Source: a virus
IMG/VR virus record: IMGVR_UViG_3300027714_000114
Location: 1-24,754 of that record
Reading direction: 5' to 3' (one strand)
DNA: 24,754 nt
The notes below the pieces were generated by a model. It was not told the origin of the DNA. It searched no databases and saw only the letters and a list, made by a program, of their open reading frames with translations. A program made the translations under genes and the position numbers. Positions 15,200-22,088 of the stretch are shown here, piece after piece (position 1 is the first letter of the stretch; every line of letters begins with the position of its first letter).

Positions 15200-15567
15200 T
15201 TTATTGCCTCTCGTTTAGATTTTGATGTTGCTATTTTAATTAATTCCTGAAAACGCCTTATGTTTTCTTTTCTCTGATGCGGCGATATCTCAAACTCTTG
15301 CTTGGTAATTGCTATGTGACTTCTCGGTAACAGTGCCTTGATTACTTGTGCCGGGGTAATCCAATTAACCGATGCAGTACGGCATAGCTGCCAAGCTGCG
15401 GCTATCCGATCGCTATCTTCAGGACGTAAGCCGTGATTCCAGAAAGTCTCCAAATAAGTTTTCAATGTAATCTCAGCCGTAACCTCGTCATTAGCTGGCG
15501 CAAACGCAAGGCCAGCAGAACGAGTTTTCATAATCTCTTCAGCGATAACTTGTTTTAGCTTACTCAT
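15196..15567 (-). CDS. Replication-region protein following the initiator
   Basis: A 123-residue, mainly helical protein whose start overlaps the initiator stop by 4 nt (ATGA). The segment LKTYLETFWNHGLRPEDSDRIAAAWQLCRT, then WITPAQVIKALLPRSHIAIT, resembles the small proteins that often follow DUF1376-type initiators in proteobacterial phages (pattern W-x-x-P-x-x-x-x-x-x-LP-R). It may help load a helicase or act as an initiator partner. That is inference, as no catalytic motif is present. It ends with Lys/Arg. Confidence 0.6.
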   Translation of the reverse strand: MSKLKQVIAEEIMKTRSAGLAFAPANDEVTAEITLKTYLETFWNHGLRPEDSDRIAAAWQLCRTASVNWITPAQVIKALLPRSHIAITKQEFEISPHQRKENIRRFQELIKIATSKSKREAIK

Positions 15568-16355
15568 TTCAACCCCTTTTTCTCTGGTGGTAGTGGCTCA
15601 TCCATAAACTTCTTAGCTGCTGCATACGTTCCTGTCATGCTGTTCTTTTTTGCTTTGGCTACCTTCATACTCTCAGGAAAGAACCCGGTCCACTCAGCAT
15701 CCATCGCTTCCTGCACAGCTTGTGCTTGAATGTCTGCAGGATACCTCGCTAGTTTGAGCGCAGCGTTATCTGTTTTGTATGGTGGCTTCTTTATTTTCTT
15801 TCTGTATTCAATCCAAGTTTCCCAAACTGCTAAATCAAGATCTTTCAAAAGTGAGTAATCAGGATCGATGAGAGAAACGTTTTTATTTGGTTCTTGGTTA
15901 TTGGTTCTTGGTTCTTGGTTATTGGTTGGTACCTCACTCGTACCACGCCCGTTTAACGCCCGTTTAACACCTGTTGAGCTCTTGTTGGATGTCTTGGGAC
16001 TATCCTTTGTAGATCTTCTCTTCTTCCTTGCGGCCCGGGCAGCTGCAGAAGCTTTACCAGCCTTGCTATTAGCCTCAATCTTGGATTGGTATTTGTCTAT
16101 CTCTAGGTCACATCTAACGTGCCTGTATCCATCGTCATCGATTATAAAATACTCACCCAACACACCAATAAGAGCCTCTTTTTCGTCATCTGTACGGGCC
16201 ATTAGCCGCCGAGACAGGACATCAATATCAGTGGTTAGTGGTAATTCTGTGTCGTAGTAAAGATTTATTGCATCGACGTACAACGCCCGTTCAACGAGCG
16301 TTAAATGTCTCGTTGAATTATTGAAGTCGGAAATATTGAAATTGTAGTAGTGCAT
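15564..16355 (-). CDS. Replication initiator-like protein with DUF1376 N-terminus
   Basis: A 263-residue protein. The N-terminus (YYNFNISDFNNSTRHLTLVERALYVDAINLYY) and the following VLSRRLMARTDDEKEAL belong to the DUF1376 phage replication domain, a winged-helix related to O-type initiators. Residues about 90-160 are a basic, low-complexity linker with NNQEP repeats. The C-terminus (LAVWETWIEYRKKIKKPPYKTDNAALKLARYP) has a motif common to replication proteins. It likely binds the phage origin. The DNA of the linker carries ordered short repeats and could itself be the origin, as in lambda O. GAGGAAGTT precedes the ATG. Confidence 0.75.
   Translation of the reverse strand: MHYYNFNISDFNNSTRHLTLVERALYVDAINLYYDTELPLTTDIDVLSRRLMARTDDEKEALIGVLGEYFIIDDDGYRHVRCDLEIDKYQSKIEANSKAGKASAAARAARKKRRSTKDSPKTSNKSSTGVKRALNGRGTSEVPTNNQEPRTNNQEPNKNVSLIDPDYSLLKDLDLAVWETWIEYRKKIKKPPYKTDNAALKLARYPADIQAQAVQEAMDAEWTGFFPESMKVAKAKKNSMTGTYAAAKKFMDEPLPPEKKGLK
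15887..15928 (+). repeat. Six tandem 7-bp repeats TTGGTT(C/A/G)
   Basis: TTGGTT begins every 7 bases at 15887, 15894, 15901, 15908, 15915 and 15922, with C, A, C, C, A, G as the seventh base. It lies inside the initiator gene and encodes the NNQEP repeat. Confidence 0.9.
15946..15967 (+). repeat. Two tandem 11-bp iteron-like repeats CGCCCGTTTAA
   Basis: Perfect tandem copies at 15946-15956 and 15957-15967. A one-mismatch copy, CGCCCGTTCAA, lies at 16284-16294 near the initiator start. The 11-bp period is about one helical turn, as in replication iterons. Confidence 0.75.
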
Positions 16356-16525: not shown

Positions 16526-16798
16526 TTAGGATCTAAGCTCGTAGAAATCAGCAAAGCCCGGATACTTACTATTCCACATCCGAGTGTAGAATGGGCAGTA
16601 GCTGTTGTTCAGCTTCCATCTATCACCAGTAGCCCTTAACCCGGAGTACCAACGTAGGTGCCCAAACAGGTCACGCATGGACCCTCTTGTGCGAGCTCTG
16701 CCGATCTGCTCCTTTGTTGTTTTCTCGATCTCCTCCCAAACGTGGGGGTTCTCTTCGTGGTACTTATTGAATCGTTCCTGCCAGTTAATCTCACTCAT
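16526..16798 (-). CDS. Conserved small phage protein
   Basis: A 90-residue protein starting at ATG 16798, with AAGGAG 7 nt upstream. A TTG at 16801 is in frame but inferior. The pattern FNKYHEENPHVWEEIEKTTKE-x-I...FGHLRWYSGL...KLNNSYCPFYTRMW is that of a widespread small phage protein in which an aromatic core HLRW and NNxYxPFYxR recur. The function is not established to my knowledge. It overlaps the Cro-like gene by 8 nt. Confidence 0.7.
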   Translation of the reverse strand: MSEINWQERFNKYHEENPHVWEEIEKTTKEQIGRARTRGSMRDLFGHLRWYSGLRATGDRWKLNNSYCPFYTRMWNSKYPGFADFYELRS

Positions 16799-16979
16799 CA
16801 ATATACTCCTTGGGGATCTTAGTGCCTCGGCGTGAGGCCAGACCTATGATCTCGTTGACCCGGTTCTCTGGCAGAGGATCTGCCAAACGGTGCCAAGTTG
16901 TCTCCGCTATACCAAGATCATTAGCCATATCCGTAATAAAACGGTGGCCCAATAAATGCATTGCATCAAATTTAGTCAT
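16791..16979 (-). CDS. Cro-like DNA-binding regulator
   Basis: A 62-residue protein with a short helix-turn-helix (ITDMANDLGIAETTWHRLADPLPENRVNEIIGLA) typical of Cro/DicA-like small regulators. It is the first gene of the minus-strand train, just downstream of the divergent promoters, the standard place of an early switch repressor. It would bind operators in the 16980-17090 gap and balance minus- and plus-strand transcription. No oligomerisation domain is seen beyond the HTH. A partner repressor is not in the window. Confidence 0.75.
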   Translation of the reverse strand: MTKFDAMHLLGHRFITDMANDLGIAETTWHRLADPLPENRVNEIIGLASRRGTKIPKEYIDE

Positions 16980-17005
16980 ATCTTCACCTTAAATAATGAG
17001 CTGAC

Positions 17006-17035
17006 ATACTAGCATTACGCATTTAAGTCTTGCAA
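17006..17035 (-). promoter_or_regulatory. Minus-strand sigma70 promoter (extended -10)
   Basis: -35 TTGCAA (17035-17030), 18-nt spacer, then -10 TAGTAT (17011-17006) preceded by TGC, an extended -10. It points to the Cro-like gene at 16979. Confidence 0.7.
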
Positions 17036-17058
17036 GTTATATTTCTAACCAGTATAAT
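17030..17058 (+). promoter_or_regulatory. Plus-strand early promoter sharing its -35 box
   Basis: -35 TTGCAA (17030-17035), 17-nt spacer and consensus -10 TATAAT (17053-17058). TTGCAA is self-complementary, so the same six base pairs serve the minus-strand promoter. The flanking 8-bp palindrome CTTGCAAG (17029-17036) is a candidate operator. Confidence 0.8.
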
Positions 17059-17066
17059 CGGGTCTG

Positions 17067-17090
17067 GTTAAACGAGAAAAGGTAAACGAG
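17067..17090 (+). repeat. 24-nt leader repeat, copy 1
   Basis: Begins GTTAAACGAG and ends GGTAAACGAG directly before ATG 17091. It is identical to 18443-18466. The AAAGG core may act as ribosome site, and AAACGAG-ATG recurs before later genes. Confidence 0.85.
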
Positions 17091-17369
17091 ATGATAGTGA
17101 CTATAGTAAAAAAGATATATGTTTGTGGTGCATGGAGGCCAGCCCTTATCAAGCCCGGTAGGAAGCTGCTTTCAGTTGTTCACCGGGTGGATAGCAAACC
17201 CGGGGTCCGAGTAACCAAGGTGCCATTAAGGTGTCTAGACAAAGTTGTGGAGCTGGCCCCATTCAAGGGCAAGCCATACCCAACCAATCGATTCGTTAAA
17301 GCCCTTGCGGCTGAGGGTCGTAAGTATGGGGTGACGGCTGAGGCTAAAGCGATCTTGGGGGGTGTGTAA
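17091..17369 (+). CDS. Hypothetical early protein (92 aa)
   Basis: First gene of the plus-strand operon, behind the strongest promoter of the window. It has a basic N-terminus with mixed beta character (VTIVKKIYVCGAWRPALIKPGRKLLSVV) and a Lys/Ala-rich C-terminus. No motif is recognised. It is coupled to the next gene by TAATG. Position first in an early operon often marks host-takeover proteins, but nothing in the sequence confirms this. Confidence 0.65.
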   Translation: MIVTIVKKIYVCGAWRPALIKPGRKLLSVVHRVDSKPGVRVTKVPLRCLDKVVELAPFKGKPYPTNRFVKALAAEGRKYGVTAEAKAILGGV

Positions 17370-17563
17370 TGGGGACATCAATTAAACAAGCGTGTTCTGA
17401 TTCCGTAGCCATCCTTAATTTGAGAGGCTGGGCTTTTGACTCACTTCAAGAGTTAAGGAAAGTGGTGGCCCACCACCCCGGCGCCGATGTTGATCCTGAG
17501 CTACACGCGAAGCTTAAGCAAGCCAAAGTATTATTGGCAGACATAGCTGGGTGTAAGAAGTGA
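17369..17563 (+). CDS. Hypothetical early protein (64 aa)
   Basis: A small helical protein (IKQACSDSVAILNLRGWAF, then DPELHAKLKQAKVLLADIAG). Starts in a TAATG overlap with the preceding gene and ends in a GTGA overlap with the next. It is not recognised and has no membrane segment. Confidence 0.6.
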   Translation: MGTSIKQACSDSVAILNLRGWAFDSLQELRKVVAHHPGADVDPELHAKLKQAKVLLADIAGCKK

Positions 17564-18387
17564 CGGTAGCTAGAAAATCAGTAGCTCGTGTCCGGTGGGA
17601 ATGTCCCACCTGTGGCGCGGGCGTTCTTGCTGCCACCAAGCCACGGCGGAACAATATTGCTAGGTACTGTCTGCCCTGTTCGGGGAAAGCTGGCGTACTG
17701 GTGGAAAGATTATGCCCGACACTGGAGAGACAGCGGAAGCAGAAAGTTGACGCCAAGAAAGTCCGAGCTGAAAAGCGGCGGCTGACCCAAACCCCAAAAC
17801 CAAAAACAACCAGTCGATCTTGGATGCGCGATGATAAGTACATCTATCCATCGGTGGATGGTTTGACTTTCAATGTTATGGAAGTTGCCGAGCGGATGTG
17901 TGCTAGTGGGCAATGGAGAAAGCTTTGGAATAAAGGCCGCATAGATATTATGAAAAGACTTTGGGCTCGGACCATAAAGCACCGGGGTGGTGAAGGTGAG
18001 TTTCGTGGACTGGATGGTATAAGGATTGCCAAAAGCCAAGTCAATCACTACACGACTGGCCGGGCCGCTGATTGGTATGGGGTCACGATGACTTTTGGTG
18101 AGAGCGCCAGTGCAGCGTCGATCCTTGGGACAACGCTTCATGAGCTAACCCATGTAATCCATGTTGCCCACGCCCCAACCATTAATGGGGTGCGAAGACC
18201 ACATAACTTTGACTTCAATAAAATCATGCTCCGCATGGCTCGGCACTTCTGGGGGTACGACACCTCAGTGGTTGATGCTGGGTATTCAGATGGCAATGGG
18301 TATGCCCCCACACACCACCTAAATTACTGGCTGAGAGAAAGGATAATTGCCAGAGATCCAAGGGTGATGGGCTGGATTGGTGAGTAG
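17560..18387 (+). CDS. Zinc-ribbon SprT-like metalloprotease (zincin)
   Basis: A 275-residue protein starting at GTG 17560, overlapping the previous stop by 4 nt. Residues 15-18 and 37-40 are CxxC pairs (CPTC and CLPC), a zinc ribbon. A basic linker follows to about residue 90. The catalytic part shows HELTH at residues 194-198 (LGTTLHELTHVIH), the zincin HEXXH motif. A likely third ligand is H215 in RPHNFDFNKIM, spaced like the H-G-x-x-F of SprT-family proteases. These proteases cut proteins, often DNA-bound ones. A role in clearing host or crosslinked proteins from phage DNA is inference. No signal peptide, so cytoplasmic. Confidence 0.8.
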   Translation: MTVARKSVARVRWECPTCGAGVLAATKPRRNNIARYCLPCSGKAGVLVERLCPTLERQRKQKVDAKKVRAEKRRLTQTPKPKTTSRSWMRDDKYIYPSVDGLTFNVMEVAERMCASGQWRKLWNKGRIDIMKRLWARTIKHRGGEGEFRGLDGIRIAKSQVNHYTTGRAADWYGVTMTFGESASAASILGTTLHELTHVIHVAHAPTINGVRRPHNFDFNKIMLRMARHFWGYDTSVVDAGYSDGNGYAPTHHLNYWLRERIIARDPRVMGWIGE

Positions 18388-18404
18388 CGAATTGTAATTA
18401 ATAC

Positions 18405-18431
18405 TTGCGAACTGTTTGGTTATTCTATACA
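18405..18431 (+). promoter_or_regulatory. Weak possible promoter before the second leader
   Basis: TTGCGA (18405-18410) and TATACA (18426-18431) with a short 15-nt spacer, just before the second copy of the leader repeat. The similarity to the first promoter is partial. Confidence 0.3.
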
Positions 18432-18442
18432 GTAGTAATCCA

Positions 18443-18466
18443 GTTAAACGAGAAAAGGTAAACGAG
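18443..18466 (+). repeat. 24-nt leader repeat, copy 2
   Basis: Identical to 17067-17090 and again directly before an ATG (18467). The repeat fixes the start of the next gene here rather than at an upstream in-frame ATG at 18416. Confidence 0.85.
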
Positions 18467-19354
18467 ATGAAAAATAAAAGTAAACATAGCTGGGTGAACA
18501 TAGACCCAGCCAACTATGAGTATGTTGACTCCTATAGCACAAAGCCCCCACGCATTGATCCTCACAACCTTGATGGATCAATTTATCTTTTGGAGTTATG
18601 GAGAAAGCAGAGGGAAGATTTCAGGGCCAAATTTGTTGGGACACAATATCCCAGCCTGAGCCGTTGCGACTGCTGTGGAGCTCACATGATTTATGGAAAC
18701 ATTTTTAACCACGATAGTGGTGATCTGGTGAAGCTTGGTGAAACTTGTGCAGACAATGTTGAGTTTCATGATTCAAAACGAGATCTGGCTCAGAAGCGTT
18801 TGAGGGACCGGGCCAAAGCAGATCGCGATTCGCAAAAGAGATTGGAGGCGAGACGCATCACCCGCAGAGAGATGATTAATGAGTTGAAAACCAATCCTGA
18901 ATTCAGGGAGGCTTTTAAAATTCGCAAGCGAAACGATTTCATCTACGATCTTTTGTGGAAGCGGATTCAAGGCTATAAGTGGACGGAACGACAGGAAGAG
19001 GCTTTCTACGAAGCGGCCAAGAAGCAGGTTGAGTTTTACGACAAAAAACAGATCGAACTTAATGAGCGAGAAGCAAAACTTGCCACCGCACCGAACCTTA
19101 CAGAAGGTAAGCAGTCAATCACTGGGAAGGTGATTGGTAAAAAGTGGAAAAGCGATGACTGGGGTTGTACTTTGAAAATCATTGTTGAGCTAAGTGATGG
19201 CAACCGTGTTTGGGGAACAGCTCCAGCAAAGGTGCTAGAAACTATTGATGAGGAAGATGGGGTTAAGGTTACTTTTACTGCATCAGTTATTGCCAGTGAC
19301 AATGACCCTCATTTTGGTTTTTTTAAGCGCCCAACTAAAGCATCATTAATCTAA
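18467..19354 (+). CDS. Zinc-binding, coiled-coil protein with C-terminal OB-like domain
   Basis: A 295-residue protein starting at ATG 18467 behind the leader repeat. Residues about 65-95 contain CDCCG, then GNIFNHDSGDLVKLGETCADN, a Cys/His/Cys metal site seen in unassigned phage proteins. Residues about 100-215 are a charged coiled coil (Arg/Lys/Glu-rich). The last 80 residues form a beta-rich domain (ITGKVIGKKW, CTLKIIVELSDGNRVWGTAPAKV) that resembles an OB fold for single-stranded nucleic acid. It is followed by the recombination genes. A DNA-binding role in recombination or replication is inferred. No family is named. Confidence 0.6.
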   Translation: MKNKSKHSWVNIDPANYEYVDSYSTKPPRIDPHNLDGSIYLLELWRKQREDFRAKFVGTQYPSLSRCDCCGAHMIYGNIFNHDSGDLVKLGETCADNVEFHDSKRDLAQKRLRDRAKADRDSQKRLEARRITRREMINELKTNPEFREAFKIRKRNDFIYDLLWKRIQGYKWTERQEEAFYEAAKKQVEFYDKKQIELNEREAKLATAPNLTEGKQSITGKVIGKKWKSDDWGCTLKIIVELSDGNRVWGTAPAKVLETIDEEDGVKVTFTASVIASDNDPHFGFFKRPTKASLI

Positions 19355-19382
19355 TATACTTGAACACTTACGGAGAAACGAG

Positions 19383-19919
19383 ATGATTAAACTAAATGTA
19401 AAACCTACGACAAAACCTACGACCAAGGGTCAGTTCACGGTCACTAATAATATCAACGATCGAGAGTTCTACTTTGTAGAGAAGGGTGGAATATTCCGTG
19501 AGATCGACAACGATGGCCGGGCTCTTACCCGGGTAATTGATACCCGCACCAAGCTCATTCAGCACCTTAAGGACCGTGTTGTCAATAAACCGGGGTTTCT
19601 GGTTCATTACTTTGAGCCCAAGCATACAGATCGGCCAGCGAACAAAATGTCAACTCAAGCCGAGCAGGTTGGCGCAAGTGTCGATGATTTTGATCTTGAT
19701 GATAATGAGATTACCGACATCGTTGATGCGTGTTTTTCTGATGAGATCGATTTGGCTGCTTTGATTGTTATTGCTAGGGCCATAAGAGCCCGAGGTGAGG
19801 AGTGGCTTGAGGATAAAATTGAGAAGCATACAAACGACTTGATCGACGAAGAGTCTGCCCGGGGTGACTGGGGATACGAGCAAGAAAAAGATCGCCGTTT
19901 AAATGCGGCAGGAGAATAA
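19383..19919 (+). CDS. Hypothetical acidic protein upstream of recT
   Basis: A 178-residue protein with GGAG 7 nt and AAACGAG just before the ATG. Residues 5-16 carry a duplicated KPTT motif from a 12-bp DNA repeat. The first 75 residues are mixed beta/alpha (DREFYFVEKGGIFREIDNDGR). The C-terminus (VDDFDLDDNEITDIVDACFSDE, ...EEWLEDKIEKHTND) is strongly acidic and helical. It is not recognised. Its place directly before recT suggests a partner, but the exonuclease motifs of RecE or YqaJ proteins are absent. Confidence 0.6.
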   Translation: MIKLNVKPTTKPTTKGQFTVTNNINDREFYFVEKGGIFREIDNDGRALTRVIDTRTKLIQHLKDRVVNKPGFLVHYFEPKHTDRPANKMSTQAEQVGASVDDFDLDDNEITDIVDACFSDEIDLAALIVIARAIRARGEEWLEDKIEKHTNDLIDEESARGDWGYEQEKDRRLNAAGE

Positions 19920-19920
19920 A

Positions 19921-21063
19921 ATGGGAAAAGAATTAAAGCTAAATCCAACTGCGGTTGGTCTGGATGAATTCATTCAGGTGAATGCTGGGAAACAATTTTC
20001 GGTGTCGAATGATCAGAATCTAAACTTCGATACGGAGAAGCGGTTCGCGGTCCAACAGATCATGAAGAACGACTACAGTCTGGGTGCGGCGAGAAAGAAC
20101 TCTCAAAGCGTTGTGAACGCAGTAGAGAATATATCGGCCATTGGCCTGTCTCTTAACCCAGCGTCTGCTCACGCCTATCTGGTGCCCCGTGACGGAGCCA
20201 TCTGCTTAGATGTGAGCTACCGGGGGATCATCCAGCTGGGCACCAATGCTGGTGTTGTGGAGTGGGTTCGCGCTGCAGTTGTATATGCAGATGACAACTT
20301 CATCTATCGCGGCCCAGCTAAAGAGCCCGAGCATATCTCAAACCCATTCGCTAAGAAGGATGACCGGGGTGAGGTTATTGGAGCCTACTGTATTGCCAAG
20401 ACCAAAGCCGGGGATATTCTATGCGAAGCAATGTCTCGAGAAGAGATCGATGAGATAAGGGGTGTATCTAAAGCTGGTCAGTCTGAGTATGGACCTTGGG
20501 TTAATTACTTCACCGAGATGTGCAAGAAGACTGTGATCAAACGCGCATCTAAAACGTGGCCCTATTCAGGTGGTCGGGTGCAGCTCGATCGTGCCGTTGA
20601 GATTGCCCATCAGGCCGATGGATTCTCATCAACAATTGAGCGTGAGCCCAGTGAGTTTAAGCATAGCCCGGAGCAGTACGTTTACTTTGAGGAAGCGTTC
20701 ACCGCTGGCAGTGGCTTTGATTTGTATCTGATCAAACGGACCGTTGATAATGAGCTGTTCGCTGGCTTGGTGGGCTCCCTATTAAGCACCGTTCCACGAG
20801 GAACTAAAGCCACTGAAGATAAGCGGCTCACAGCACTACTGGCTGACGGTGAAAAACTTTATCAGGATACTTGGCCAGCAATCGACGAGGCTTTCCTTGG
20901 TGATGATAAGCTGTATCTAATATCACTGATTGAAGACTTCTCCCGCAGTCAAATCGAAAAGCTTCTGGAAGAGCTGAACACTGATTGTGCTGACTGGGCG
21001 ATATCTGTAATCGAAGACCCTTCCTATATGGAAGATAACGTAAAACTTGTAGAGGAATTATAA
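19921..21063 (+). CDS. recT: RecT-family single-strand annealing protein
   Basis: A 380-residue protein from ATG 19921, chosen for its GGAG site 6 nt upstream. An in-frame ATG at 19903 lies in the previous gene. The core shows the RecT/Redbeta-like pattern: [55 protein letters not shown] and [21 protein letters not shown]. It anneals single strands during phage recombination. Typical RecT is about 270 residues. The last 105 or so residues (after the [10 protein letters not shown] region) are an extra acidic, helical domain. SSB follows 1 nt after the stop, a natural partner. Confidence 0.88.
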
Positions 21064-21064
21064 A

Positions 21065-21502
21065 ATGGCGTCACGTGGAATTAATAAAGTAATAGTGCTT
21101 GGTAATCTGGGCAAAGATCCTGAGATTCGTTATGCGGCTAATGGTAGCGCGATAGCTAGTTTCAGTATTGCCACATCTGAAAGCTGGAAGGATAAAAACT
21201 CTGGCGAGAAGGTTGAGAAAACCGAGTGGCATCGTGTCTCAGCCTTTGGAAAGCTGGCTGAGATTATCGGTGAGTATTTGAAGAAAGGCTCTCAAGTTTA
21301 TATAGAGGGAAAGTTGCAGACCCGGAAGTGGCAGGATAAGTCTGGTGCCGACAGGTACACCACTGAGATAGTGGCGAAAGATATGGAGATGCTAGGCAGT
21401 AAAAACTCTGGGAATAGTGGGGCACCTGAAACCAAACGGGAACTTCAGCAAGAAGCTTTGGTTTATAACAAGCCAGATTTCGATGACGAAATTCCATTCT
21501 AA
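21065..21502 (+). CDS. ssb: Single-stranded DNA-binding protein
   Basis: A 145-residue SSB with the full OB-fold pattern: [77 protein letters not shown]. The C-terminus ends in the acidic tip DDEIPF, used by SSB to recruit partner proteins. It protects phage single strands and acts with the upstream RecT. Confidence 0.95.
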
Positions 21503-21522
21503 TTGCATAAGGGAGAAACGAG

Positions 21523-21738
21523 ATGAAAAAAATAACAGAACCACAGCAGAAGGTCTTCGAATTTATCAAGGCTGAGATTAGGCGCAACCAGCGCCCACCG
21601 ACCGTATCGGAGATAGCCAATCAATTCCACTGGAAATCACCCAACGCAGCGTGGTGCGTCCTTTGTGCGCTGCAGAAGAAGGGCTACATAAAACTTGCTA
21701 ACGACAACAAGGCGCGTGGAATTAGGGTGATAAGATGA
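21523..21738 (+). CDS. LexA-type DNA-binding domain protein without protease domain
   Basis: A 71-residue protein starting behind GGGAG-AAACGAG. The sequence matches the LexA N-terminal winged helix (PPTVSEIANQF, NAAWCVLCALQKKGYIKL, ARGIRVI), including the recognition helix and the wing. It stops where LexA would continue to the cleavage site and S24 protease, so it cannot self-cleave. It may occupy LexA-type operators or regulate the phage. It overlaps the next gene by 4 nt. Confidence 0.82.
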   Translation: MKKITEPQQKVFEFIKAEIRRNQRPPTVSEIANQFHWKSPNAAWCVLCALQKKGYIKLANDNKARGIRVIR

Positions 21739-22088
21739 AGATGACCAACAAGCAGCGCGGATCTTTGCATGTCTGGCTGGACCAGTGGGCTTTTGCGCTA
21801 CGCGAAGAGGGTGTGACTATGGATTTAATTGTCCGCACCCTAGCCACCAGAAGCATAGAAGCGAAGCCAACTAAAATGCTACTCAAGGAGCTGGTGTGGA
21901 AACCAGTTCAAGAGAAGTTAGCTGCAGTGATGTCATCCGAGAAGATGGAGACAACAGATTTGGATTATATCAGCGAGGCTTTATCAAAGTGGAGTGCCCA
22001 AGAGTTTGGGGTAGCATCTCCGCCATGGCCCAGCGAAGAAACGCTAATGCGAAAGCAGCTGGATGGAGGCAAGAATAATTCGCTGTAA
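21735..22088 (+). CDS. Conserved phage protein of replication/recombination blocks
   Basis: A 117-residue protein beginning MTNKQRGSLHVWLDQWAFALREEG, the opening of a widespread uncharacterised phage family (pattern TNKQR-x-SLHxW...LA-x-x-L). It continues LLKELVWKPVQEKL. The function is unknown. It often sits near recombination genes. It is the last gene of the plus-strand operon, 20 nt from the convergent nuclease gene. Confidence 0.7.
   Translation: MKMTNKQRGSLHVWLDQWAFALREEGVTMDLIVRTLATRSIEAKPTKMLLKELVWKPVQEKLAAVMSSEKMETTDLDYISEALSKWSAQEFGVASPPWPSEETLMRKQLDGGKNNSL

What the first reader, a model, noticed from the sequence alone, without database searches (positions are those of the whole stretch)
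16980..17090. Back-to-back promoters sharing one palindromic -35 box
TTGCAA at 17030-17035 is self-complementary. It has TATAAT 17 nt to the right for the plus strand and TGC-TAGTAT 18 nt to the left for the minus strand. RNA polymerase could use the same base pairs in only one direction at a time, which makes a compact either-or switch. The Cro-like gene is the first product of one arm and the CTTGCAAG palindrome may be its operator.
Basis: partly seen in the sequence, partly recalled or inferred. Interest (0 to 1): 0.6.

Follow-up and report, generated by a model that had tools for sequence, protein, structure and literature searches.

The report
Overlapping back-to-back phage early promoters
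In a small gap between two oppositely transcribed gene blocks of an uncultured BPP-1-like phage, one very good promoter and one mediocre, opposite-facing promoter appear to use the same six bases, a compact form of the known 'overlapping divergent promoters' that makes the two directions compete but is probably not a true on/off switch by itself.

Summary
The sequence features exist exactly as described. 16980-17090 is the only divergent gene gap in this 24.75-kb fragment of a BPP-1/DC33-like podovirus. The plus promoter TTGCAA-17-TATAAT is the best sigma-70 match in the window, either strand, and very unlikely by chance. The minus partner TTGCAA-18-TGC-TAGTAT is ordinary: about a 6% chance given TTGCAA, and it ties with a rival minus promoter whose -10 (TATACT, 17056-17051) overlaps the plus -10, the known 'shared -10' bidirectional class (PMC12825309). 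A promoter gap here fits synteny: relatives place a P22_Cro-family gene at the same position. The 62-residue product itself has no detectable HTH by Pfam, PHROG or fold search, there is no CI opposite it, and CTTGCAAG as operator is unsupported: an 8-bp palindrome arises in 46% of such gaps. Shared -35 pairs recur modestly in relatives: 6 of 135 divergent gaps versus 1.9 expected. Verdict: real compact divergent control region, strong plus promoter, probable overlapping weaker minus promoter, steric competition; the 'switch' and operator claims are unproven. New member of a known kind.

The parts
16980..17090 (.). only divergent gene gap in the window, 111 bp
   Evidence: ORF map, gene calls
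17030..17035 (.). TTGCAA palindrome, candidate -35 on both strands (4/6 to TTGACA each way); core of CTTGCAAG 17029-17036
17053..17058 (+). TATAAT, perfect -10 of the plus (early) promoter; start expected near 17065
   Evidence: PWM 14.58, best in window
17006..17011 (-). TAGTAT with upstream TGC, candidate minus -10 (extended); start expected near 16999
   Evidence: PWM 10.18
17051..17056 (-). TATACT, rival minus -10 overlapping the plus -10, with TTTTCT at 17080-17075 as its -35 (spacer 18); start near 17044
   Evidence: PWM 10.39
17046..17070 (.). inverted repeat TAACCAG-N11-CTGGTTA around the plus -10/start region, alternative operator candidate
   Evidence: P about 0.11 by chance
16791..16979 (-). 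62-residue gene, first of the minus arm, syntenic with P22_Cro-family genes of relatives; HTH not demonstrable
16526..16801 (-). second minus gene, 90-91 aa, phrog_13625 (unknown function)
15564..16355 (-). DUF1376/primosomal replication protein, 263 aa
17091..17369 (+). first plus-arm gene, 92 aa, no known family, not a recognisable CI repressor
19903..21063 (+). RecT in the plus (recombination) arm
17067..17094 (+). leader GTTAAACGAGAAAAGGTAAACGAGATGA, exactly repeated at 18443-18470
18405..18470 (+). second, weaker copy of the promoter-leader module (TTGCGA plus identical 28-bp leader)

Best explanation
The gap is the divergent early-control region of a BPP-1-like podovirus. A strong host sigma-70 promoter (TTGCAA-17-TATAAT) drives the plus arm (unknown genes, RecT, SSB), and a weaker extended -10 promoter (TTGCAA-18-TGC-TAGTAT) drives the minus arm (small Cro-position gene, DUF1376 replication gene, onward to terminase). 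In a 111-bp gap with 20-26 nt leaders the two -35 boxes must roughly coincide, so TTGCAA is read from either face by sigma region 4. Polymerase bound one way blocks the other; the stronger plus promoter should dominate at first, and a phage regulator (possibly the 62-residue protein) may shift the balance. Shown: sequence, positions, scores, synteny. Inferred: promoter use, start sites, competition, regulation.
For: The best sigma-70 site of the window sits in its only divergent gap; P=0.0008. Leader lengths of 26 and 20 nt fit the ribosome sites. Relatives have the same divergence point with a P22_Cro-family gene. The upstream region plus leader is partly duplicated at 18405-18470, upstream similarity P=0.0045. 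Shared -35 pairs scoring at least 10 both ways occur in 6 of 135 divergent gaps versus 1.9 expected with the best promoter held fixed, 0 of 114 convergent and 0 of 400 tandem gaps; in the 39-gap subset 5 versus 1.1.
Against: The minus partner is weak (10.18), about 6% by chance given TTGCAA, and has an equal rival. No close relative holding this gap was found, so conservation of TTGCAA is untested. The closest named relatives with the gap, DC33 and zth2-2, do not have TTGCAA in it. No transcript data; host unknown.
Confidence: 0.5

Rival explanations
1. The plus promoter is real, but minus transcription starts from a -10 that overlaps the plus -10 (TATACT 17056-17051, or GATTAT 17059-17054), i.e. 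an ordinary bidirectional promoter made by -10 symmetry; TTGCAA serves only the plus direction.
For: The rival minus site scores 10.39, slightly above the shared -35 reading. Divergent starts 7-25 bp apart sharing a -10 are the common bidirectional class (PMC10268837, PMC12825309); here the starts would lie about 18-21 bp apart.
Against: Its -35 TTTTCT is poor, its leader would be about 65 nt, and the TGC extended -10 at the other site is then unexplained.
Confidence: 0.25
2. Only the plus promoter is real; the minus half of the pattern is a coincidence and the minus arm starts elsewhere or needs another polymerase or an activator.
For: The minus score is ordinary: 29 of 49,498 positions reach 10; 6-9% chance.
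Against: The minus arm needs a promoter about here, since it begins 111 bp from a divergent gene; shared -35 pairs recur modestly in relatives.
Confidence: 0.2
3. A lambda-type lysis/lysogeny switch with CTTGCAAG as Cro operator.
For: Temperate relatives BPP-1 and Acinetobacter phage 4316 have cro opposite cI at this position.
Against: No CI or HTH in the first plus gene; a single 8-bp palindrome is expected by chance; 62-residue protein without HTH match.
Confidence: 0.05

Closest known systems
Bidirectional sigma-70 promoters with a shared -10 element (PMC10268837, PMC12825309)
   Same: Pseudo-symmetric core element read from both strands; polymerase binds in one orientation at a time.
   Different: There the -10 is shared and starts are 7-25 bp apart; here the -35 would be shared and the starts would be about 66 bp apart, pointing away from each other. 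The rival minus site here would be of the published class.
Overlapping divergent promoters Pc/Pr of plasmid pLS20 (PMC4207663)
   Same: Strong and weak opposing promoters that overlap so that polymerase excludes itself; a regulator adds the switching.
   Different: There the favoured model has the -10 and -35 positions exchanged, start sites were mapped and the regulator RcoLS20 was shown to bind; none of that is known here.
BPP-1 (Rauchvirus) and Acinetobacter phage 4316 cro/cI control regions
   Same: Same divergence point, cro leading the replication/late arm, gap 84-121 bp.
   Different: They carry a CI/LexA-like repressor opposite cro and separate -35 boxes; the window has an unknown 92-residue gene there.

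Membership tests
Divergent sigma-70 promoters with a shared -35 | -35 and -10 hexamers at 16-18 bp in both directions around the same hexamer | tested here: met
Divergent sigma-70 promoters with a shared -35 | both strands better than background | tested here: inconclusive
   plus P=0.0008; minus P about 0.06-0.09
Divergent sigma-70 promoters with a shared -35 | transcription starts in both directions dependent on TTGCAA | not testable with these tools
   needs 5'-end mapping and mutants
Shared -10 bidirectional promoter | opposing -10 elements overlap with predicted starts 7-25 bp apart | tested here: met
   TATACT 17056-17051 over TATAAT 17053-17058, starts about 21 bp apart (spacing rule from PMC10268837)
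Shared -10 bidirectional promoter | mapped divergent starts | not testable with these tools
   no transcript data
Lambda-type cro/cI switch | CI-like repressor transcribed opposite cro | tested here: not met
   92-residue first plus gene matches no Pfam or PHROG family; 12 of 31 relatives' genes at this place have Peptidase_S24
Lambda-type cro/cI switch | repeated palindromic operators in the gap | tested here: not met
   no repeated palindrome in 16900-17150
P22_Cro (PF14549) | profile match of the 62-residue protein | tested here: not met
   no Pfam hit, while 14 of the 15 aligned proteins match and the window's is the one that does not; weak profile score 6.6 versus 5.7 for the best of 200 shuffles
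P22_Cro (PF14549) | HTH fold | tested here: inconclusive
   all-helical model, mean pLDDT 70; no PDB match below E 2.9, P22 Cro itself only E 9.9

The most novel reading that the evidence does not exclude
A shared, (near-)palindromic -35 (TTGCAA, TTGACAA/TTGTCAA) is a recurrent, selected way for phages to couple their divergent early promoters, the -35 counterpart of the shared -10 bidirectional promoters, so that the orientation in which host polymerase binds itself sets the balance of recombination versus replication genes.
Probability: 0.12. Interest if true: 0.5.

Novelty: new member of a known kind. Interest (0 to 1): 0.25.

Why it matters
If both directions really use TTGCAA, one hexamer mutation would change two phage operons at once, a clean natural construct for measuring how polymerase orientation competes at a shared -35, a geometry not covered by the two papers on shared -10 promoters read here. 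It also marks the early-control region of a phage group in which many members lack a CI gene opposite the Cro-position gene.

Tried and rejected
Conspecific copies of the gap: protein scans with the 62-, 91- and 92-residue products and an exact leader pattern found none in IMG/VR; the same-species terminase contigs L005-L007 end before the gap. DNA similarity to phages: none. TTGCAA as a conserved operator across marine relatives: it recurs in their gaps but at the same place alternates with TTGACA-like and TTGCGA-like hexamers (seen by eye), so it behaves as a -35, not an operator. The excess of shared -35 pairs over plain shuffles (5 versus 0.13 in 39 gaps) shrank when the best promoter was held fixed (5 versus 1.1; 6 versus 1.9 in 135 gaps), because TTGACAA is nearly symmetric; L153/L154 are sister sequences and have better-placed alternative promoters on the cro side, so the remaining excess is modest. 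Fold search of the 62-residue model gave no credible match. Literature searches for divergent promoters sharing a -35 returned no direct precedent in the open-access library, which does not prove there is none.

Full report
What was checked. The window is a 24,754-base virus record. The terminase is 65% identical to that of Limnohabitans phage DC33 and 55% to that of Bordetella phage BPP-1, so it is a fragment of a BPP-1-like podovirus. Genes from 16979 leftward are on the minus strand, genes 17091-22088 on the plus strand; 16980-17090 is the only divergent gap. TTGCAA 17030-17035, TATAAT 17053-17058 (spacer 17) and minus TAGTAT 17011-17006 with TGC (spacer 18) are all present.

Is it more than chance? 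A sigma-70 weight matrix (hexamer frequencies from memory, so scores are approximate) ranks the plus site first of 49,498 positions in the window, 14.58 against 12.58 for the next; random 111-mers of the same composition reach this in 0.08% of cases. The minus site scores 10.18; random 111-mers reach that in 9%, and given TTGCAA a partner this good appears in 6%. A second minus site, TTTTCT-18-TATACT, scores 10.39 and its -10 overlaps the plus -10. So the plus promoter is credible on sequence alone; the minus one is not identified by sequence alone.

What the surroundings say. In DC33, zth2-2, Caulobacter phage Jess A, BPP-1 and Acinetobacter phage 4316 the same divergence point exists with a small gene at its head on the replication/terminase side. 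In aligned relatives 14 of 15 of these small proteins match P22_Cro; the exception is the window's 62-residue protein. It aligns in position and scores just above shuffled controls against a profile of them, and its predicted model is all-helical but of modest confidence and without a structural match. Thus it is Cro-like by position, not shown so by sequence. Across the relatives' opposite genes, 12 of 31 have a Peptidase_S24 CI-like repressor and 15 an HTH_3 domain; the window's 92-residue gene has neither. The only repressor-like domain seen among the plus-arm proteins scanned is a 71-residue LexA DNA-binding-domain protein at 21523-21738.

Comparative test of sharing. From about 2.9 Mb of fetched loci, 135 non-redundant divergent gaps of 50-300 bp were collected with a simple gene finder. 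Six have opposing promoters that share a -35 with scores of at least 10 both ways, against 1.9 +/- 1.3 when the best promoter is fixed and its flanks resampled; convergent and tandem gaps give 0 of 114 and 0 of 400. All six are in phage control regions (window, L048, L124, L152, L153, L154; L044 scores 9.8). The excess is modest, two are sisters, and some have better alternatives. Simple geometry explains much of it: back-to-back promoters with 20-26 nt leaders in a gap of about 110 bp must meet at the -35, and TTGACAA or TTGCAA can be read both ways.

How it most likely works (inferred). Host polymerase recognises TTGCAA-17-TATAAT and makes a 26-nt leader before the 92-residue gene; less often it binds the other way, using TTGCAA with the extended TGC-TAGTAT -10, to make a 20-nt leader before the 62-residue gene. 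The two complexes cannot coexist. Work on shared -10 promoters found no marked competition at basal levels, but strong reduction of one direction once the other was improved (PMC12825309); for pLS20 the authors argue that overlap makes a switch only when the promoters differ in strength and a regulator affects them differently (PMC4207663). Here no such regulator is demonstrated, so competition is likely and a switch is conjecture.

Operators. CTTGCAAG occurs once in the window and an 8-bp palindrome is expected in 46% of such gaps; a repeat like TAACCAG-N11-CTGGTTA around the plus -10 is expected in 11%. Neither is compelling.

Verdict. Observation confirmed; interpretation partly supported; an ordinary kind of compact divergent promoter region with one unusual, testable detail.

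Noticed in passing
17067-17094 and 18443-18470: Exact 28-bp repeat of a gene leader (GTTAAACGAGAAAAGGTAAACGAGATGA) in front of two plus-arm genes, with weak similarity continuing upstream into a TTGCRA box (P=0.0045): a duplicated promoter-leader module.
   Followed up: partly
17084, 18460, 19376, 21516: The start-codon context AAACGAGATG occurs four times, always at a plus-arm gene start and never on the minus strand; perhaps an early translation signal.
   Followed up: partly
21523-21738: 71-residue protein that is essentially only a LexA DNA-binding domain (PF01726), without the peptidase half, near the end of the plus arm; a possible truncated repressor.
   Followed up: no
17560-18387: 275-residue plus-arm protein with a weak SprT-like/metallopeptidase resemblance, below the Pfam cut-off.
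   Followed up: no
L001 (PQ492659.1): Limnohabitans phage DC33 is filed under Inoviridae in its record's taxonomy line, yet it is a 39-kb genome with a terminase 65% identical to this window's; the taxonomy looks wrong.
   Followed up: no
L152 gap; L049 30759-30842; L051 10511-10631: Repeated palindromic operator-like sequences seen by eye (TTGCGTCAAACGCAA; ATGCGTYAACGCAT; TTGCGTTTGACGCAA) in the cro/cI gaps of temperate relatives, absent from the window's gap.
   Followed up: no
15887-15927: Two tandem 20-bp copies (TTGGTTCTTGGTTATTGGTT) inside the DUF1376 gene, encoding a repeated NNQEP-type linker.
   Followed up: no
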